In this document: one piece after another, positions 5,543 through 19,318 of the stretch
How the letters are laid out: every line of letters begins with the position of its first letter
Numbering within the stretch: position 1 is the first letter of the stretch
DNA from: a virus
DNA: 21,820 nt
Reading direction: 5' to 3' (one strand)
Virus record (IMG/VR): IMGVR_UViG_3300030520_000675
Coordinates: 1 to 21,820 of that record
The notes under the pieces: model-generated
Seen by the model: only the letters and a program-made list of their open reading frames with translations
Told to the model about the DNA's origin: nothing
The model's database searches: none
Translations under genes and position numbers: made by a program

Positions 5543-7656
5543 CAGGAGGGATCGGACTGAGAGCCCGAGGTAGCGGTGGTCCTGAGGTACCTGACGAATT
5601 TCTGGACGGAGGCTTTCCCCGTTCCCGAGAAGCGATGCGAGAACAGAGTCCCTTTGTCGGAGATGTTGTTCTGCTTCTGCGTCGTTTCTTCGCCCATCGT
5701 GAAGACTTTCCGAGCTTCGATCGGCTTGAAGTCCTTGGAGGTCGCGACGTCGATCGTCCCCGCAGCCCAGAGCTTCGACTTCACAAGCTCCTTCTCGTCC
5801 TCACTGCCGAGGTCGTAGAGACCGCTCTGCCACGCCCAGCCGGGGAAGGTGGCTTGTTCTTCGGCCTTGGGTCCATTCCAGAAGACGGTTTTCGTCTGGG
5901 AGCAGAAAAGGCGAGGACGGACGCCGGAAGACTGTTCAGCGCTCAGGTAGTAGATCTTCACCTGCATGGCGTCGACCTGCGCTTCGGCGGCACTCAGTGG
6001 AGTGGGACGCAGTTCGACGGCCACCGCGACCCCGAACCCCGTCGCGTTGATGTCGGAGGGTGCCCAGGTGTTTCCCCAGAGGTCTTCGGAGCCCCCGTAC
6101 ACCGACGTTCCGGCTCCGATCCAGAATGCACCCCGCGATTTGTCTTCGGTTTCCTTGACGACCCCGGCCTTGACTGCACGGACATGCGATTCCGTGACGC
6201 CGTCGCCCTCCCTGATGACACTGAGTTCGATCCCGACGATCGTCGCTCCGGTCGGTATGGAGAAGCCGAAGTTGGTGGCCTTGAGGTAATGGGTCGTGAC
6301 TCCACTTTTCCCCGACGCCACGGAGGCCGAGGCGTGCTGACCATCCGGTGCGCCCTCCGCCTTCGACGGTTCGCTCCAGGCCTTCGTCCCGACGCCGCTG
6401 TTGTCTTCGACGGTGGCGGCATAGTCCGCGGCCGATTCCGCACCACCACCCGTCAGCCCCGTCCAGATCGCCATCGAGACCGAGGGCATCTTCCAGCACG
6501 TCCACGTTTCGACGTCGATGTCGTAGATGAACATGAATTCGTAGCGCTTGCAGTAGATCCGTCTGCCGAGGACGCAGATCCCGACTGCGGGCCAGCGGAA
6601 GGATTCGGTTTCGCCGTTGAGGAATTCGGCCATCGGCCCTTCGAAGGGAACGGTCTCCTCGAGAGGCTTCAGTTGAGGGGAGATCTTGGTCGGCTGCGAA
6701 CCCGTGGACTGGTAGATCCCGTCCGTCGTGCAGAAGAAAACTCCATCTTGAGACGCCCAGCAGATCCGGTCCGAGGTCTCCTTCAGCTTTTCGGTGAGGA
6801 CCTGCTTGATGTGGGAGCCTTGACCGAGGGTGACTTCCCGGAAGCTGAAGACCGCCTGACCGTGTTCGTTGGATTCGGGCGGGGAGACGACGAAGAACTT
6901 CGTTTCCTTGAAGACGTAGAGCTGTGCCGCGTAGACGCAGAGGCCGGTGATTTCCTCGCCGTCGCCCGCTCCGAGGATCAGGTTCTCGGTGGGGTCGAAC
7001 CTGATGGCTTCCACGGTCGCGGGCATCGGACGTGAGATCCAGACCTCGGATGCACTCGAAGCGGCTCCGTTGGGACCGCCGGTCGCACCGCAGTTGGCGA
7101 CGACCAGGACGTTATTGGCGTCGGGCCAGCCGACCATGTGACGACCTCTCGGGTATTCCTTCCCCGTTTCGAGCGTCCGTTCGCCGGTTTCCGCGTTGAC
7201 GTTTTCGATCGTGCAGGTCGGTTCGGTGAAGGTCGTCCCGTCGAACTCGATCACCTTCTGAGCCGCCACGTTCGTCCGCAGGTAGGTGAACGTCCCCGAG
7301 GGAGTTCCGATGCTCGCGAAGGTCGACGGAGCTTCGGTGGAGTTCACCGCATTCGTCGTGACCTCAGTGCCTTCCTTGTTGATCGCCACCACTTTCGCTT
7401 CTGAGCCGCTCACCCGTTTGATCGCCAGCAGCCGAAGTGCGGAGTGGGGATAGAGACCCTTGTATTCGCCTGAAGCAGCCGAGGCGTTGAGTTTCTGGAA
7501 GCCGTCTCTCGAACGGAAGTTCCCTACGGAGCCGTCACGCTCGATGTCATGCTCGTAGATGGAAGCGTTGGCTCCCACCTCGTCGAGAGCCTGGTCGAGT
7601 CGGAGTCCTCCGAATTCTCCGAACCCCACGGCCTTTTGTTCGGTGGTGGCAGCCAT
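5542..7656 (-). CDS. Tail nozzle-type protein of a short-tailed phage, beta-rich with an inserted domain (704 aa)
   Basis: This is the long beta-rich protein that follows the adaptor, the place of T7 gp12 or P22 gp10, which form the tube below the portal. Residues 10-20 read GFGEFGGLRLD. Residues about 215-400 alternate short strands with Trp, Tyr and Cys in propeller-like fashion (ICWASQDGVFFCTTDGIY, then GRRIYCKRYEFMFIYDIDVE). The end (about 575-695) resumes the same style. Between them, residues about 408-573 are a separate Gly/Thr-rich beta domain (NFGFSIPTGATIVGIELSV, YGGSEDLWGNTW). The start chosen is the ATG overlapping the TGA of the adaptor gene (TGATG). An upstream in-frame ATG at 7776 would add 40 residues lying wholly inside the adaptor gene and lacking the character of the rest. 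It probably meets the adaptor ring and closes the tail channel. I am confident it is a tail protein and fairly confident of the nozzle role. Confidence 0.85.
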   Translation of the reverse strand: MAATTEQKAVGFGEFGGLRLDQALDEVGANASIYEHDIERDGSVGNFRSRDGFQKLNASAASGEYKGLYPHSALRLLAIKRVSGSEAKVVAINKEGTEVTTNAVNSTEAPSTFASIGTPSGTFTYLRTNVAAQKVIEFDGTTFTEPTCTIENVNAETGERTLETGKEYPRGRHMVGWPDANNVLVVANCGATGGPNGAASSASEVWISRPMPATVEAIRFDPTENLILGAGDGEEITGLCVYAAQLYVFKETKFFVVSPPESNEHGQAVFSFREVTLGQGSHIKQVLTEKLKETSDRICWASQDGVFFCTTDGIYQSTGSQPTKISPQLKPLEETVPFEGPMAEFLNGETESFRWPAVGICVLGRRIYCKRYEFMFIYDIDVETWTCWKMPSVSMAIWTGLTGGGAESAADYAATVEDNSGVGTKAWSEPSKAEGAPDGQHASASVASGKSGVTTHYLKATNFGFSIPTGATIVGIELSVIREGDGVTESHVRAVKAGVVKETEDKSRGAFWIGAGTSVYGGSEDLWGNTWAPSDINATGFGVAVAVELRPTPLSAAEAQVDAMQVKIYYLSAEQSSGVRPRLFCSQTKTVFWNGPKAEEQATFPGWAWQSGLYDLGSEDEKELVKSKLWAAGTIDVATSKDFKPIEARKVFTMGEETTQKQNNISDKGTLFSHRFSGTGKASVQKFVRYLRTTATSGSQSDPS

Positions 7657-8336: not shown

Positions 8337-8924
8337 CTAGATCACCATCGATAGGAGTGGTTGGGCAGCGGTCACTTCGACGGCTTTGGAGACCGAGGCG
8401 TTCGCGGCCCCTTCCCACGAGCAGGTGTAGCCGGAGAGCGTCGTGCCACCGTCGAAGTAGGTGAGCGTTTCGCTTCCTTCCTCCACCAGGATCGAGTCGA
8501 CGTAGAAGGTCGCGGTCGAGGCGACGGCCACTTCGAAGATCAGGCCGAAGGCACCGGCCGTGGGCTTCGTGGTCAGCGTGTAGGAGAACCGCTGCCACGC
8601 TCCGTTGCCGACGATCGAGCTGGGGAAGTGGTTTTCGAGGAAGCCCGCGAAGCCGGCCGTGTATTCCTGGAGGATCGGGTTGACCGTCGTCCCGGTCGGG
8701 ATCTTGATCCAGGTGCTGACCGTGAAGGTCTTCGAGCCGGTGACGCTCTGGGAGATTTCGCCTGCCGCCCCGCTGTTGACGACGTTCCCGAGGACGACTT
8801 TCAGCGCATGGGTGCCGTCGTGGACTTCGGTCGTCTGGATCGTGACCGTCGAGGTGCCGGCGGTTTCCCAGACCAGCGATCCCTCGAAGTTCGGGAATTC
8901 GCTGAGGTTCCTGCGTTCGGCCAT
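8337..8924 (-). CDS. Carbohydrate-binding (CBM4/9-like jelly roll) virion protein (195 aa)
   Basis: Residues about 10-150 have the pattern of the CBM_4_9 type jelly roll: an early strand pair with HDGTHALKVVLG, then TFTVSTWIKIPTGTTV, WQRFSYTLT, LIFEVAVASTATFYVDSILVEEG and a closing Tyr-Phe-Asp-Gly. The phrase in which YVDSILVEEG is followed by YFDGGT is typical of phage tail proteins bearing this module. No catalytic residues are visible. It lies six bases after the glycosidase-like gene and abuts the adaptor gene, so it probably works with the enzyme in holding cell-surface glycan. A GCGGG-ATAAG-CCCGC mini-hairpin spans the junction before its ATG and could limit initiation. A decoration role on capsid or tail is possible as well. 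Confidence 0.78.
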   Translation of the reverse strand: MAERRNLSEFPNFEGSLVWETAGTSTVTIQTTEVHDGTHALKVVLGNVVNSGAAGEISQSVTGSKTFTVSTWIKIPTGTTVNPILQEYTAGFAGFLENHFPSSIVGNGAWQRFSYTLTTKPTAGAFGLIFEVAVASTATFYVDSILVEEGSETLTYFDGGTTLSGYTCSWEGAANASVSKAVEVTAAQPLLSMVI

Positions 8925-8930
8925 GCGGGC

Positions 8931-9875
8931 TTATCCCGCCAGTGCTTCTTCGAGCGCCTTCGGCCAGTCCTGCGAGCCGTAGCCTTCGTGCTCGGTGAAG
9001 AAGCGCACATTGCCGATCGACGGCGTCTTGAGGACCTCCGCGAGGGCCGCCGAGACGCTGGCGGTTCCTGGGACGTGCACCAGGTAGAGCTTGCCCGCAG
9101 CGGTCTGCCGCGCCATGACCCCGAGCGCGGATTCGATGTAGGTCTGCGGCTGCACCGTCGCGCCACCCGGCCAGACGTAGAAGAACTCGTCGTAGCCGCC
9201 GTCGTAGTAGGCGAACTGCTTCTCCACCCAGCCGTCCGTTTCGAGGTCATATTGCCCGACGCAGCCGCTCATGTTCGGGATCGCCAGCAGCCCCGCCGCA
9301 CGGATCATCGGACCGGCGACGGCGTTGAAGGCTTCCATCCCGGCGTTCCAGGTCGAGGCCGAGGAGGTCTGCCCGGAGGAGACGTTCATGTCGTCGAGGA
9401 AGATGCCCTCGGTGCCGACCTTCTTCGCAGCCGAGATCGCCGCTTCGGCCCACGCCTTCGCGTAGCCGGTGGTGCCGGGAAGGCAGACGTAGCCGCCCTC
9501 GTCGGAGTCGACCTCGGTCGTGGCCGCCTTCAGGGCCTTGGCCTGCTTCAGGGTGAGCCCGGAGTTGTAGTTGCCGTAGGTGTCCGGTTCCTGGGCGCGG
9601 GAGCAGTTCTGGTAGACGAGGACGCGGGAGCCGAGCTCGTGGGCGGCTTCGATCAGGTCGGTGCGCCAGCGCTGGACGACCACGATGTCATCGGGCCTCG
9701 TCAGCGGGGAGACGGTCGTGGCGATGGCGATGCGGAAGGTGCCGAGGTGTTCCTTCGAGGGTGTCGGTTCGGCCTCGAGCTTGAGGGCCGCGATTTCAGC
9801 CCGCAGCTTCGAGTCTGCACGACGCTTTTCCTCTTCTTCGAGACGCTTGAGGACGGATGCGACGGTGGCTGCCAT
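8931..9875 (-). CDS. Putative glycoside hydrolase-like protein, GHL15-type, tail-associated (314 aa)
   Basis: Residues 7-35 form a short charged coiled coil, likely a trimerisation or attachment segment. From about 44 the protein follows a TIM-barrel-like series of strands. These are the early strand RIAIATTVS, RVLVYQNCS, the run GIFLDDMN at 157-164 with two acidic residues at a strand end (D161, D162), LAIPNMSG, and DGWVEKQFAYYDG with E218. This matches the GHL15 family of putative glycosidases that are frequent as minor tail proteins in actinobacterial phages. D161/D162 and E218 are candidate catalytic acids by analogy, not proven. The ATG overlaps the TGA of the fibre gene (TGATG), and the CBM-like gene follows. 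The likely role is local degradation or recognition of host surface glycan during adsorption. Two sampled lines here are about 68-70% GC, higher than several neighbours. Confidence 0.8.
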   Translation of the reverse strand: MAATVASVLKRLEEEEKRRADSKLRAEIAALKLEAEPTPSKEHLGTFRIAIATTVSPLTRPDDIVVVQRWRTDLIEAAHELGSRVLVYQNCSRAQEPDTYGNYNSGLTLKQAKALKAATTEVDSDEGGYVCLPGTTGYAKAWAEAAISAAKKVGTEGIFLDDMNVSSGQTSSASTWNAGMEAFNAVAGPMIRAAGLLAIPNMSGCVGQYDLETDGWVEKQFAYYDGGYDEFFYVWPGGATVQPQTYIESALGVMARQTAAGKLYLVHVPGTASVSAALAEVLKTPSIGNVRFFTEHEGYGSQDWPKALEEALAG

Positions 9876-14075: not shown

Positions 14076-16286
14076 TCAGGAGGCCGCTGCGACCGAGTTC
14101 TGATCTTCTTCGCCGTTCACGTAGGGCTGTGACGGGAGAGATTTCGGTTCGGGGGTCTTGGCGGCGTTCGCCATCCCCTGCGTTTCCGCGGTGGTCGTCT
14201 GGAGTTCCGCCCGGCGCTGGGCTTCCTTGGACTGGATTCCGAGGAGCGCGCCGTAGTAGAGACCTGCGGCCTTTTTCGATTCTTCATCGAGTTCTTCGTA
14301 GTCGGAGGTCTTCATCCAGGACTCGAGGATCTGCTTGTGAAGGTCGGCGTTGTCGAATTTCCTCGGCATCCAACCGGGGACTGATTCGAGCTGGAAGGGT
14401 TTGCCCGTCTGGTAGTTGATGACCGGTTCTTCGGTGACGGGATCGAGAAGTGGTGCTTCTTCGTCGGGAAGCAGCGGGCGCGGAGGCACGTTCCAGAACG
14501 CACCCGACTTGATCAGGGCGATGATCCGGTAGGCCCTCACTTCGTCGCGTTCGTAGCTTTCGACCAGACGCTCAGGCTGGGCGGAGTTCAGCGCCGCGAT
14601 CACCACAGGCGGCGGGAAGTAGCCGGGGAACATGTTGTTGATCGAGACGATTTTGTTTTCGAGCGCCTGCCGCGTACGTCCTTCGAGGGAGCCGGGAAGC
14701 ACCTGAACGTCGGTCTGGCCTTTGATGTCAGCTCCCCGGAATTCCGAGAGGTCTTCCCAGCCGGCCGCGCCTTTGAACTTCAAGAGGCGTTCTTCGGAGT
14801 AGTAGCGCTGGACGAGCGTCAGGCAGTCCCGCATAAGTGCGGCGTGGACTTCGGCGAGGTCGGCGATGAAGTCCGCCCACGAGGCTTCGTTTCGTTCGAA
14901 GATCGCCTGGATCGCCTGCGCGCTGTGGAGACCGGCCGGGACTTCGTAGTCGAAGGAGATGCGTTCCAGCTCGGTCGAGGCGTTTTCCTGCTGGCGGTAG
15001 ACCTCGCCGGGGACTTCGTACTGCGCTTTCCATTTCGGTTCGGCGTTCGCCAGCATCGGGTCGTATTCGATGACCGTTCCCGGCTCGTCGGTGACCGGCG
15101 TCTCCTCGGACAAGGCTCCGATCGGGACCATGAGCTGCGGGTTCATCCCCATTTCGACGCCTTCTTCGGCCTTGTTCGCAGCCTGGTCGTAGGAGCGCAT
15201 CGGGTCGATCAGGGAGATGACGAGTCCCCTGTTGCGATCAGAGGCTGCATCCACTGCGTAGAAGAGGCGGTGAAGAGCGGGTTCATCGACGACGTTGCCT
15301 TCGTTGTCGACGCAGGGATAGGACTCTTCGGGGAAGATCACGCGCCCGTTGGCCATGATCAGCCGCCGTCCCATGGGCCATTTGGCGCAGGGCCGCTCCA
15401 GGTATTCGACGACCATCACCATTTCGGTCCCGGTGCGAAGTCTCTGAGGCTTGGGGACGGAGGCGGTTTCGGCGTCGGCCTTCAGCTTTTCCCCGTTGTC
15501 GATGAAGCCTTCTTCTTCTTCGACCAAGGACACCGGGCGTGCGGTCTCGACCGCCATCCAGCGCGACTCCTCGAACTCGACGCCCGGTTCCCAGAGAACC
15601 TCGAGACCGCCGTAGACGACGATCTTCACCTCGCCCTTCCCGATGTACTGCGGGTTGTCGGGATCTGGCTGCCCCGCGTAGGGCATCGAGCCGTCTTCGA
15701 GGACGAGGTCGGCTTCGGGATGGACGGAGACATCGACGTAGGGCCCGACGCTGGAATCCCAACGCGCCCCGATGAACCCTTCATCCGTCACGAGGCCGTT
15801 CCAGATCAGCCGTTTCGTGGCCCGTTTGATTTCCCACTTCTCGTAGCCCGCGTAGGCGACTTTTTCGGCCACCTGCGAGGCAAGGAACGCTTCCTCGCCT
15901 TCACCTGAAGGGATGATTTCGTAGCCGGGGATCTTGGCCGTCGAGGCCGCGATCTTGCGCTTGATGATCGGCCCGAGGAGATCGTGGGAGCGTCTGATCC
16001 GGTGATCGGGCATCGTGCCGCCGTTGGAGAGCGCGACGGTCGAGGTCTGGTTGAAGGAGACCTGATCCTCACCGATCCACCCGTAGTGGTTGCCGTTGGT
16101 GAAGGCGCTGGCGAGTTTCCGGCGCGGAGCTACCTGTTTGAGCCGTTCGCGTCCACGATCGACCCGTTTCTGAACGTCCTTCGGAGGCTTGATCGGAGGA
16201 CTGACCTTCTTGGTCGGTTCGGCTTCGGGATCGGAGGCGACAGGTTTCCCCATCGCCTTCGCCGCGATCTCGGTCAGCGATGCCAC
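14076..16286 (-). CDS. Portal protein (736 aa)
   Basis: The protein forms the ring at the head vertex through which DNA enters and leaves. Its large size is typical of short-tailed phages with P22-like portals. Recognisable parts include a basic N-terminus (about 35-60), RRSHDLLGPIIKRKIAA (98-114), LIWNGLVTDEGFIGARWD (160-177), PMGRRLIMANGRVIFPEE (304-321, the W-P-x-G-R-x-L run common in these portals) and RSYDQAANKAEEGVEMGMNP (364-383). A long helical crown-proximal section (about 430-500) includes VPAGLHSAQAIQAIFERNEA. The C-terminal 70 residues are Gln/Ala/Glu-rich, like a barrel or crown helix. Translation begins at GTG directly after the TAA of the membrane-protein gene, with GAGGG about eight bases upstream. 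It is followed by a gap with a hairpin and then scaffold and capsid. Confidence 0.87.
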   Translation of the reverse strand: MASLTEIAAKAMGKPVASDPEAEPTKKVSPPIKPPKDVQKRVDRGRERLKQVAPRRKLASAFTNGNHYGWIGEDQVSFNQTSTVALSNGGTMPDHRIRRSHDLLGPIIKRKIAASTAKIPGYEIIPSGEGEEAFLASQVAEKVAYAGYEKWEIKRATKRLIWNGLVTDEGFIGARWDSSVGPYVDVSVHPEADLVLEDGSMPYAGQPDPDNPQYIGKGEVKIVVYGGLEVLWEPGVEFEESRWMAVETARPVSLVEEEEGFIDNGEKLKADAETASVPKPQRLRTGTEMVMVVEYLERPCAKWPMGRRLIMANGRVIFPEESYPCVDNEGNVVDEPALHRLFYAVDAASDRNRGLVISLIDPMRSYDQAANKAEEGVEMGMNPQLMVPIGALSEETPVTDEPGTVIEYDPMLANAEPKWKAQYEVPGEVYRQQENASTELERISFDYEVPAGLHSAQAIQAIFERNEASWADFIADLAEVHAALMRDCLTLVQRYYSEERLLKFKGAAGWEDLSEFRGADIKGQTDVQVLPGSLEGRTRQALENKIVSINNMFPGYFPPPVVIAALNSAQPERLVESYERDEVRAYRIIALIKSGAFWNVPPRPLLPDEEAPLLDPVTEEPVINYQTGKPFQLESVPGWMPRKFDNADLHKQILESWMKTSDYEELDEESKKAAGLYYGALLGIQSKEAQRRAELQTTTAETQGMANAAKTPEPKSLPSQPYVNGEEDQNSVAAAS

Positions 16287-16499
16287 TTAGTTGTCCCTCG
16301 GGATCTGCCCACGGGATTCCATGAGCTTCTTGTACTGCTGGTCGGTGAAGACCCGCTCGGGTTTCGGGTGCTTGGGGGCTTCTTCCACGATCACGTTCTG
16401 CGGGCTCTGTAGCCGCCGTACGAGCTTCTCGCGCTCGCGCCAGTTGAAGTACGCCTGAGCGACGAGAGCGACGACGAGAAGGCAGCAGACGAAGATCAT
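16287..16499 (-). CDS. Small single-pass membrane protein before the portal gene (70 aa)
   Basis: Residues 1-17 form one hydrophobic helix (MIFVCCLLVVALVAQAY) followed by a basic, helical REREKLVRRLQSP and a Pro/Lys-rich tail. The topology suggests the N-terminus in the membrane and the tail in the cytoplasm. From memory, genes of this exact design (one helix, a charged helix, then a short LQ/IQ-x-P phrase) commonly precede portal genes in actinobacterial phages; the function is not known. It has only one helix and is not next to a lysin, so I do not call it a holin. The ATG overlaps the previous TGA (ATGA), and the portal GTG follows its TAA without a gap. Confidence 0.75.
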   Translation of the reverse strand: MIFVCCLLVVALVAQAYFNWREREKLVRRLQSPQNVIVEEAPKHPKPERVFTDQQYKKLMESRGQIPRDN

Positions 16500-16831
16500 G
16501 AGCCTTCCGCCGTGATGATCCGTCCACCCGAGTCGCGGAGGAAGTTGGCGTGATTACGGACCGCGGTCCCGGTCGAGACGACGACTCGTCCTTCCGAATC
16601 GAGCGGAAGGCCGAAGCGGACCTTTGACACCGTGGAACCGGCCGAGAGACAGACCTGTCCTTTGGTGGTCAGAGGCCAGCCGTTGGTCCTACGCGCGACA
16701 GTGCCCCCGACGACCGTGGCAAGACTGCCCGCTGACGTGCGTGCGAGTCCTTCTCGGCGCTTGCCTTCGCCACTCGGTTTGATGACCAGCTTCCCGCTGG
16801 ATCGCAGGAAGCCACCGGGGTCCTTCGACAC
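16496..16831 (-). CDS. Protein built of five ~22-residue beta repeats (111 aa)
   Basis: No known family is assigned. Nearly the whole chain consists of five units starting at residues 7, 28, 51, 74 and 96: GFLRSSGKLVI, GLARTSAGSLATV, GWPLTTKGQVCLS, GLPLDSEGRVVVS and NFLRDSGGRIIT. Each has an aromatic or Leu, a polar turn ending in Gly, and a Val/Ile strand. The pattern predicts repeated beta-hairpins, so it may form a solenoid, a small propeller or an oligomer-building ring. The GTG start lies just after the TGA of the SAP-like gene, and its TGA overlaps the next ATG. Lying between terminase and portal, it could be a head-vertex or surface protein, but nothing in the sequence shows that directly. 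Confidence 0.72.
   Translation of the reverse strand: MSKDPGGFLRSSGKLVIKPSGEGKRREGLARTSAGSLATVVGGTVARRTNGWPLTTKGQVCLSAGSTVSKVRFGLPLDSEGRVVVSTGTAVRNHANFLRDSGGRIITAEGS
16511..16813 (-). repeat. Five degenerate ~66-bp coding repeats
   Basis: Protein-level repeats with spacings of 21, 23, 23 and 22 residues fill this gene. The consensus is roughly G-L/F/W-P/L/A-L/R-x-S/T-x-G-x-V/L-V/A. The nucleotide copies are strongly diverged, so this is an old internal duplication kept by selection on the fold. Confidence 0.7.
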
Positions 16832-16834
16832 CGA

Positions 16835-17320
16835 TCAGCCCCGGATCTTCTCGATGATGTCTTTCTTCGTGCTGGCTCCGTGAAGCTCCACGCCGTTCTT
16901 CTTCGCGGTCGCCTTCAACTGCGCCACGGTGCGGTCCTCGTAGGAGCCTGAGCCGGTGTCGTCGTCATCGGCGTCTCCCGCGTTCGGGACGACGGTCGTC
17001 GGGACGGGAGCGTCCTTCGGCTCGCCGTGGATGTCGGTGAGCTGTTCGGGACGCTGGTCCGGGGCGGTGACCAACTGCGAGGAGGTCCGGTTGTCGGCTT
17101 CGTTCGAGGACTCGTAGTAGATCCGCGAGCCGTCGATGTCGGAGATGCCCAGACCGGCTTTGCCCTCGGCGTCGTAGGTCTCGTCGGCGCTCAGGGTCGT
17201 GGTGGTCGCTGGTTTGGTGGTCGGGTCGATGACGACGATCTGACCGCTCTGGACGGTGATGGAACGGACTGGACCGGGGAGCGTGTTGCCCTGACCGGGA
17301 TTCATTTCAAGTACGGGCAT
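16835..17320 (-). CDS. Protein with C-terminal SAP/Rho-N-like domain (161 aa)
   Basis: The first third is beta-like (VRSITVQSGQIVVIDP, residues 18-33). The middle (about 85-125) is Pro/Asp-rich and probably unstructured, with an acidic DADDDDTG. The last 35 residues (TVAQLKATAKKNGVELHGAS, then KKDIIEKIRG) have the helix-turn-helix pattern of SAP or Rho N-terminal domains, which often bind nucleic acid and occur in small phage structural-region proteins. I chose the ATG at 17320, which has a GGAGG-type site in good place and overlaps the preceding gene by 14 bases. The longer in-frame start at 17350 overlaps it by 44 bases and adds a ten-residue unlike stretch. It may be a head-completion or packaging-associated protein; I am unsure of this. 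Confidence 0.75.
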   Translation of the reverse strand: MPVLEMNPGQGNTLPGPVRSITVQSGQIVVIDPTTKPATTTTLSADETYDAEGKAGLGISDIDGSRIYYESSNEADNRTSSQLVTAPDQRPEQLTDIHGEPKDAPVPTTVVPNAGDADDDDTGSGSYEDRTVAQLKATAKKNGVELHGASTKKDIIEKIRG

Positions 17321-17744
17321 TGATGATCTCCTCCTTGGTTGGCTCGACAAGCTCCTCGGCCGCGGCGATGATCTCCGTGTCGGGAAGCTCGATGTCTGGG
17401 TAGAACTGGCTGATGACCGCGCTTGCGGCAGCCGCTCCTGCGTAGGCGAAGGCTGCGGCTTCTGCTCGGGCCTCGATCTTGGAGGTCTTCTTGTCGCCGA
17501 GCAGTTCGGCGTTCTCGTTGATCAGGGCGTCACGCTCGGCCTGAAGGACTTCGGCCTCGGCCAAGGTCAACATCCCGCACTCCTTCGCGGCACGTTCGAC
17601 GATGTCCCGCCGTAGGTAGACGTGAGGGTCGGGACCGTTCGCCTCGGCTCCGAAGTCGATGATGTCCCCGTCGGCGCGGCCGGAGATGATGCAGCTCTTC
17701 GGTAAGAACGGGAGTGGCTTGTGGACGATGCGGGGACGTGCCAT
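17307..17744 (-). CDS. Conserved-type unknown protein with CIISGR...DGDIIDFG motif (145 aa)
   Basis: The N-terminal half contains SCIISGRADGDIIDFG (17-32), HVYLRRDIVERAAKECGML (41-59) and then a coiled-coil-like segment (about 62-95). An Ala-rich hydrophobic stretch at about 97-112 (AAAFAYAGAAAASAVISQF) could be a weak membrane helix or simply a packed helix. From memory, proteins with a Cys-x-Ile-[ST]-Gly-Arg and D-G-D/E-[IV]-[IV]-D-F phrase are common beside the terminase or portal of actinobacterial phages, function unknown. The ATG overlaps the terminase TAA by one base (TAATG). No catalytic assignment can be made. Confidence 0.78.
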   Translation of the reverse strand: MARPRIVHKPLPFLPKSCIISGRADGDIIDFGAEANGPDPHVYLRRDIVERAAKECGMLTLAEAEVLQAERDALINENAELLGDKKTSKIEARAEAAAFAYAGAAAASAVISQFYPDIELPDTEIIAAAEELVEPTKEEIINART

Positions 17745-19318
17745 TACGAGAACTTCCCTCCTACTCCGTGGGCGATCTTTTTAGGTGATTTGAATTCAGG
17801 TGCCGTGCCGGGCGTCCAGCGTTTTTCTGAAGGTGCCTTGCGGTGTTTGCGGCGCTCCTTGGCGATCTGGTGGGTCATCGCGATGTAGCGCATCACGTCA
17901 CAGAAGTGGTCGTTCTTCTTGACCACACCGAACGAGCCGTCCTCTTTCGGGTTCAGGCGGTACTTGCCGATCTCTTTCAGCAGGTGGGTGCAGCGGGAGG
18001 AGATCTGGATCAACGGAGCAGAGTTGCCTTCGCCGTCCTTGTGATCCATCCGCCGGAGAACCTCGAAGACTCCGGCTTCGACTTCGTTCTGAGCCGGGAT
18101 CACCCTCATCCCTGCTTCCCTCCAGGCCATATCGATCCGTTTCCCGGTTGCCAATTCCCGGGTCCAGGCGGAGGGATCGATGATGCGGTACTTCGGCTCC
18201 TTCGGCAGGCCCCACTTTTCTCTTATGTCGAAGATCCGTTCGGCGCAGTTGGCGGGGATCGCTGAAGCTCCGGAGGCTTTGTACTCGTCGTAGATCAGCA
18301 TGCGCCCTTCCTGGTCGAAACCCGCGAAGAGGACGGCGGTGGTCTGCTGGCCCGGATCTATTCCGTCCACCTGCACGAGGGGGCTGATTCGATCGGTATC
18401 GATTTTGGATTCATCGACCACGTGGATCGCAGCCGAGAATTCCGGATAGACGAGCCCTTTGAAGTGGGTGTAGTTGCCCTCGGCGTATGAGGCTCTGACC
18501 GCCTCGGGGATTTTGGCGAGCGCACCTTCCAGCCCCTCTTTCGACAGATACGGGTTGTCGTAGATCGAGGAGCGCACGACGATCAGTCCGTTCGGGTAAT
18601 CCTCGGATTGCTGCTCCTCCCAGACCTGTGGAGCTTTTTCAGGTCCCTTTTTCTCCTCGAACTCGTCGTGCGTCCAGCCGAGGCCATGGATCGGTGAGTA
18701 GGCGAAAAGCTCTTCCCCGTTGACCTCGGCGAGCCGCATCGAGGTGTTCCAGCGGATTTCTTCGCCCTTGTCTCCTTTGGGTTCCTCGTCGTAGAGGACG
18801 ATCTGGCGGGTGACGCCGCCGAACTTGTTCACGTCCTGCTCGAGCGTGAGGAAGTCGATCATCCCCCCGTTGGCGAATTGGAGCTGGTGGTTTTTCTCGC
18901 CCCACGCCTTTTCCCACGAGCCTTGACGGAGTTGGGATTCCGGCACCCATTTGTGGAGCGTTTCGAGGACGGACATCAACGTCGCCCCGAAGTCCGGCAT
19001 GATCACCCGGGCCTTGACCGGCGCACTCCAGCGCTTGTAGGGCCTCAGGTGTGGAGGGATCATGTCGTCGTCGACCAACTGGATCACGAGGTACACGACT
19101 CCTGCCGTGGACTTCCCCGATCGAGTCCCACCCATGTAGACCTTCGTCTTGGCCTCTGAGGCCATGAAGGCGACCTGCTTGGCGTGGGGACGGAACTTCT
19201 GAAGAGGGTTCTCGTCGAGCGTCGACATGACCTCGGCGAGAAGTTTCTGGACCTCCGGGTCTCTGAGCTGTTCGGGGGTGGCCTCGATCTTCAGGCCGCC
19301 CGGAAGCGTGAGACTCAA
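17744..19318 (-). CDS. terL: Terminase large subunit (524 aa)
   Basis: This is the motor ATPase and nuclease that packages phage DNA through the portal. The Walker A motif is MGGTRSGKS at 62-70. The Walker B is IVLYDEE at 173-179, with the catalytic Glu at 178 or 179. The C-terminal nuclease shows the usual three acidic sites: VDGIDPG (D318/D321), RIIDPSAW (D381) and DHFCDVMRY (D470/D474). Length is normal. Translation from TTG at 19318 overlaps the stop of the hydrolase gene (TTGA). No strong ribosome site is seen, and ATG at residue 31 is a weaker alternative that would still keep all motifs. No small terminase subunit is recognised in the window; one of the tiny upstream genes, or a gene beyond 21820, could encode it. 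Confidence 0.95.
   Translation of the reverse strand: MSLTLPGGLKIEATPEQLRDPEVQKLLAEVMSTLDENPLQKFRPHAKQVAFMASEAKTKVYMGGTRSGKSTAGVVYLVIQLVDDDMIPPHLRPYKRWSAPVKARVIMPDFGATLMSVLETLHKWVPESQLRQGSWEKAWGEKNHQLQFANGGMIDFLTLEQDVNKFGGVTRQIVLYDEEPKGDKGEEIRWNTSMRLAEVNGEELFAYSPIHGLGWTHDEFEEKKGPEKAPQVWEEQQSEDYPNGLIVVRSSIYDNPYLSKEGLEGALAKIPEAVRASYAEGNYTHFKGLVYPEFSAAIHVVDESKIDTDRISPLVQVDGIDPGQQTTAVLFAGFDQEGRMLIYDEYKASGASAIPANCAERIFDIREKWGLPKEPKYRIIDPSAWTRELATGKRIDMAWREAGMRVIPAQNEVEAGVFEVLRRMDHKDGEGNSAPLIQISSRCTHLLKEIGKYRLNPKEDGSFGVVKKNDHFCDVMRYIAMTHQIAKERRKHRKAPSEKRWTPGTAPEFKSPKKIAHGVGGKFS

What the first reader, a model, noticed from the sequence alone, without database searches (positions are those of the whole stretch)
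16496..16831. A 111-aa protein that is almost wholly five ~22-residue beta repeats
Units at residues 7, 28, 51, 74 and 96 share an aromatic/Leu start, a polar turn with Gly and a Val/Ile strand (GFLRSSGKLVI, GLPLDSEGRVVVS, NFLRDSGGRIIT). A repeat protein this small between terminase and portal genes matches no structural role I can name. It could form a beta-solenoid, a five-bladed ring or a fold at the five-fold vertex, where five repeats would be a striking match. The repeats are seen directly; the role is open.
Basis: partly seen in the sequence, partly recalled or inferred. Interest (0 to 1): 0.68.

Follow-up and report, generated by a model that had tools for sequence, protein, structure and literature searches.

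The report
Small phage protein of repeated hairpins
A short-tailed phage carries, beside the gene for its DNA-entry portal, a tiny strongly basic protein built from five copies of a roughly 23-residue unit; it is real and conserved in close relatives, but its role is unproven and the idea that five repeats match the capsid's five-fold corner has no support.

Summary
The gene lies on the minus strand (16831 to 16496, GTG start). The repeats are real: self-comparison peaks at a 23-residue period, which no column shuffle reached (0 of 2000). Units 2-5 are clear; unit 1 is weaker and is recognised mainly by its likeness to unit 5. Three uncultivated phages encode homologues (74-85% identical) at the same place, between a Rho_N-domain protein and a 70-aa membrane-anchored protein that precedes the portal gene. 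Repeat positions are conserved and the gene is under purifying selection. All four copies are very basic (pI about 11.4). No Pfam, PHROG, NCBIfam or PDB family matches, and two AlphaFold2 runs gave no usable model (pLDDT 33-35). Relatives with 44-54% identical portals lack the gene and carry other proteins in that interval: two polysaccharide-lyase-like proteins in one, beta-rich or fibre-like ones in two others. My best reading is an accessory virion (head or neck surface) protein made of beta-hairpin repeats, occupying a swappable slot; probability about 0.45. DNA-binding or packaging help is the main rival. The published triple-beta-spiral rule was tested and is not met. The five-fold-vertex idea rests only on the number five. 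An unnamed orphan repeat family, mildly interesting.

The parts
16496..16831 (-). 111-aa five-repeat protein, GTG start, pI 11.4, net charge about +10
   Evidence: ORF; periodicity; homologues and dN/dS
16751..16813 (-). repeat unit 1 (residues 7-27), weakest unit, resembles unit 5
   Evidence: offsets 89 and 68; not significant alone against units 2-4
16682..16750 (-). repeat unit 2 (residues 28-50)
   Evidence: offset 23 diagonal
16613..16681 (-). repeat unit 3 (residues 51-73)
   Evidence: offset 23 diagonal
16547..16612 (-). repeat unit 4 (residues 74-95)
   Evidence: offset 23 diagonal; leave-one-out
16499..16546 (-). repeat unit 5 (residues 96-111), truncated after its second strand
   Evidence: 0 of 4000 shuffles score as well against a model of units 2-4
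16287..16499 (-). 70-aa protein with an N-terminal hydrophobic segment (putative membrane anchor), overlapping the repeat gene by ATGA; conserved directly upstream of portal in relatives
14076..16286 (-). portal protein, P22-like
   Evidence: phrog_156 E 3e-11, PF16510 E 3e-6
16835..17320 (-). protein with C-terminal Rho_N/SAP-like domain, immediately upstream of the repeat gene (start codon by comparison with homologues)
   Evidence: the homologue in L005 matches Rho_N at E 3e-7
17307..17744 (-). 145-aa conserved protein downstream of terminase
17744..19318 (-). terminase large subunit
   Evidence: phrog_2 E 1e-17

Best explanation
The gene encodes a small accessory virion protein, most likely placed on the outside of the head or at the neck, built from a chain of five beta-hairpins. 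Each unit has a hydrophobic strand start, a polar T/D-S turn, a conserved glycine, a basic or polar residue and a Val/Leu/Ile strand, followed by a basic or polar loop. It probably folds only as an oligomer or on its binding partner. It occupies an exchangeable slot of the packaging module, in which related phages carry polysaccharide-lyase-like, fibre-like or other beta-rich proteins, and its positive charge would help it bind an anionic surface such as cell-wall polymer. Shown: the gene, the repeats, conservation, basic charge, position, and the different contents of the slot in relatives. Inferred: beta-hairpin fold, presence in the virion, oligomer, and surface-binding role.
For: Periodic repeats conserved in four phages. 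Same position in all carriers, tightly packed in the structural operon. Purifying selection: dN below dS in every pair (dN/dS about 0.2-0.4) and changes concentrated in third positions. Hydrophobicity alternates with the polar turn and glycine at fixed unit positions: position +2 after the glycine is hydrophobic in every unit checked, positions -3 to +1 never. In relatives lacking it, the interval between terminase and portal holds two proteins matching the Polysacc_lyase family (E 2e-13 and 3e-6, L005) or a 130-aa protein of beta-rich appearance plus a protein with weak matches to fibre or baseplate families (L019, L020).
Against: No confident structure: pLDDT 33-35. No sequence match to any known virion protein. 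No proteomic evidence. The slot argument is by position only, on few genomes; the fibre-family matches of L019 and L020 are weak. Strongly basic charge fits DNA binding as well.
Confidence: 0.45

Rival explanations
1. It is a DNA-binding or packaging accessory protein (internal head protein or packaging helper) that uses its basic loops to bind the genome near the portal.
For: Net charge +9.5 to +10.5 and pI about 11.4 in all four homologues; it follows a Rho_N/SAP-like protein and lies in the terminase-portal interval.
Against: No DNA-binding family matches; more distant relatives with the same terminase and portal types do without it.
Confidence: 0.25
2. It is a non-virion morphogenesis factor, for example a helper of the small membrane-anchored protein or of portal assembly, made in the same operon.
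For: ATGA overlap with the membrane-anchored protein gene, which precedes portal in all relatives inspected.
Against: The membrane-anchored protein and portal persist in phages without the repeat gene.
Confidence: 0.17
3. It is the shaft of a trimeric triple-beta-spiral fibre.
For: Short hairpin-like repeats with a conserved glycine in the turn and hydrophobic residues on both sides; fibres of this class would not be expected to fold in a monomer prediction (own knowledge).
Against: The published positional rule (hydrophobic c, e, g, k, m; Pro/Gly at j, PMC3150272) is met at only 9-10 of 30 positions with the turn glycine as j; the best other register reaches 14-15 of 30.
Confidence: 0.05
4. 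A monomeric five-bladed ring or closed five-repeat barrel sits at the five-fold vertex.
For: Five units are present.
Against: Unit 5 is truncated and unit 1 divergent; about 23 residues is short for a propeller blade (own knowledge); no model or homologue supports it.
Confidence: 0.03

Closest known systems
Orthologues in IMGVR_UViG_3300044815_000084, IMGVR_UViG_3300049259_000187 and IMGVR_UViG_3300025903_000094
   Same: Same length, same repeats, same gene neighbours, 74-85% identical
   Different: None of them is named or characterised
Motif-bearing proteins in L030 (about 140 aa, downstream of a major head protein) and L029 (start of an ORF just after a terminase-like gene)
   Same: Contain NGLPFTADG-type units with a following hydrophobic strand, in head or packaging modules
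   Different: Found by searching for that motif, so the likeness is partly selected; no alignment over the whole protein; unit model scores are weak (E 0.11 and 0.39 in a small set)
Triple beta-spiral fibre shafts (adenovirus fibre, reovirus sigma1)
   Same: Short repeats, glycine turn, hydrophobic strands
   Different: Positional rule not met
PHROG families of unknown function hit by a synthetic repeat consensus (phrog_35225, phrog_22947, phrog_28956)
   Same: Short G-hydrophobic-turn-G repeats may recur in these families
   Different: The actual window protein and its homologues do not match them

Membership tests
Triple beta-spiral fibre repeat | hydrophobic residues at c, e, g, k, m and Pro/Gly at j of a 15-residue repeat | tested here: not met
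   9-10 of 30 with the turn Gly as j, best other register 14-15 of 30 for strictly hydrophobic residues; rule from PMC3150272
Triple beta-spiral fibre repeat | homotrimer | not testable with these tools
   no oligomer prediction available
Five-bladed beta-propeller or five-fold vertex protein | five equivalent blades closing into a ring | tested here: inconclusive
   unit 1 divergent, unit 5 truncated; models unusable
Beta-solenoid | regular coils of parallel strands in a predicted or solved structure | tested here: inconclusive
   pLDDT 33-35
Known phage head decoration or head fibre family | profile match to a curated family | tested here: not met
   no Pfam, PHROG, NCBIfam or PDB match of note
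Virion protein (any) | presence in purified particles | not testable with these tools
   needs mass spectrometry

The most novel reading that the evidence does not exclude
The roughly 23-residue hairpin unit defines an unrecognised minimal beta-repeat fold used by small head-module proteins of unrelated short-tailed phages (the window group, and possibly the phages behind L029 and L030), acting as an exchangeable capsid or neck surface adaptor.
Probability: 0.12. Interest if true: 0.55.

Novelty: new variant of a known kind. Interest (0 to 1): 0.3.

Why it matters
If it is a virion accessory, it would show that the interval between terminase and portal in these phages is a cargo slot for exchangeable surface proteins, and would give an unusually short repeat-built structural protein of tailed phages. 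If not, it is one of many unexplained small phage proteins, but with a clear conserved repeat that makes it an easy structural target.

Tried and rejected
Family searches of the protein: only sub-threshold matches, for example DUF6157 E 0.009 and SSB chains E 0.5, taken as chance. Profile of all units against PDB: one weak match, a 'minor structural protein' 9s9b_m, E 0.24, not pursued because no paper was held. tblastn of the protein and of the L006 homologue against named phages: nothing credible. Genome contigs: no homologue of the repeat protein or of the terminase. Synthetic consensus queries to reach a wider repeat family: two found nothing in viral contigs; among named phages one gave only weak tail-fibre matches and another none; a direct DNA motif scan found L029 and L030. 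Named phages with related major head proteins (Mx8, BUCT555, a Bradyrhizobium phage, a Ruegeria phage, RHph_I3_18, Jasmine) showed no repeat protein in the stretches fetched. Triple beta-spiral: rule tested, not met. Two AlphaFold2 jobs: unusable, so no fold search was run.

Full report
What is there. The window is a 21,820-base virus record from a short-tailed phage, read mostly on the minus strand: an M15-peptidase protein, terminase, a 145-aa protein, a Rho_N-domain protein, the 111-aa repeat protein, a 70-aa protein with an N-terminal hydrophobic segment, portal, a probable scaffold (by position), major head protein, then tail genes including a match to the SU10 adaptor family. The repeat gene runs from 16831 to 16496 on the minus strand.

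The repeats. The window protein aligned with itself has its strongest diagonal at offset 23 and further ones at 68, 89, 22 and 46, which are combinations of 22-23-residue steps. None of 1000 residue shuffles reached the top score. With a profile of four homologues none of 2000 column shuffles reached either the best diagonal or the best periodic comb. Each unit has a hydrophobic residue six positions before a turn glycine (one position later in unit 1), polar residues before the glycine, a polar or basic residue after it, and Val/Leu/Ile two positions after it in all units. Unit 5 is recognised by a model of units 2-4 better than any of 4000 shuffles; unit 1 is not (375 of 4000), but it resembles unit 5. 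The units share only 32-54% of nucleotides, so the duplication is old.

Homologues and selection. Three other viral contigs encode it: 85% (L002), 77% (L003) and 74% (L006) identical, each between the Rho_N-type protein and the 70-aa protein before portal. Pairwise dN is 0.07-0.26 against dS 0.30-1.22 and changes concentrate at third positions. So it is a real, selected gene. All copies are basic, pI 11.4-11.6 and charge +9.5 to +10.5.

What relatives do without it. Phages with portals 44-54% identical (L005, L019, L020) lack the repeat protein. In L005 the interval holds a 110-aa protein and two proteins matching Polysacc_lyase (E 2e-13 and 3e-6); in L019 and L020 it holds a 130-aa protein of beta-rich appearance and a protein with weak matches to baseplate and fibre families. 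A small membrane-anchored protein before portal persists in all. The named relatives Shocker and DS1 have no repeat protein there. This is why I read the interval as a slot for exchangeable accessory proteins; the step from position to function is inference.

Structure. AlphaFold2 with the four-sequence alignment gave mean pLDDT 33.5, and single-sequence 35.0 for the L006 homologue. Such values say nothing for or against a fold; the alignment is shallow and the protein may need an oligomer. I therefore ran no fold comparison.

Known motifs. The hairpin-like unit suggested the triple beta-spiral of viral fibre shafts. The published rule (PMC3150272) was applied to all five units: 9-10 of 30 positions fit with the turn glycine as j, and for strictly hydrophobic residues no other register exceeds 14-15. 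The feature is not met, so it is not filed there.

A possible wider family. A DNA scan for the motif N-G-L-P-F-T-x-D-G (with the x partly restricted) found two viral contigs. In L030 it lies in a protein of about 140 aa downstream of a major head protein, with further short G-R-hydrophobic stretches; in L029 it is at the start of an ORF directly after a terminase-like gene. Because the motif was used to find them, the likeness is partly selected; the unit model scores them weakly. A synthetic consensus also matched phrog_35225 and others of unknown function, but the window protein itself does not. I treat a wider family as a lead.

Verdict. A genuine, conserved, lineage-restricted repeat protein of unknown function. 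Most likely a small accessory protein of the virion surface or neck (0.45), otherwise a DNA-binding or packaging helper (0.25) or an assembly factor (0.17). The five-fold-vertex idea has no evidence beyond the number five.

Noticed in passing
L003:2096-4600 and L003:3766-4398: The terminase gene of one relative contains an intein-like insert near its nuclease region (weak Hint_2 match E 2e-4) and an HNH_3 endonuclease ORF (E 5e-16) nested in another frame, with the terminase frame open across it. Codon shuffles suggest the open frame is likely by chance (P about 0.8).
   Followed up: partly
window 16287-16499; L003:5789-6001; L005:5754-5960; L006:8333-8554: A 68-73-aa protein with an N-terminal hydrophobic segment directly precedes portal in these phages, with similar proteins in L019 and L020; the window copy has no Pfam match.
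   Followed up: no
L005:3562-5757: Two adjacent polysaccharide-lyase-like genes lie between terminase and portal in a relative.
   Followed up: partly
L039:326-3289: In phage ctMlz233 the interval between terminase and portal carries a PhoD-like phosphatase and two other proteins of unknown function.
   Followed up: no
window 8934-9875 and 8337-8924: A putative glycosyl hydrolase (GHL15, E 8e-5, below the curated cut-off) is followed by a carbohydrate-binding-domain protein (CBM_4_9, E 2e-7) in the tail region.
   Followed up: no
L030 about 7110-7532 and L029:1-165: Small proteins with NGLPFTADG-type units occur in head or packaging modules of other phages.
   Followed up: partly
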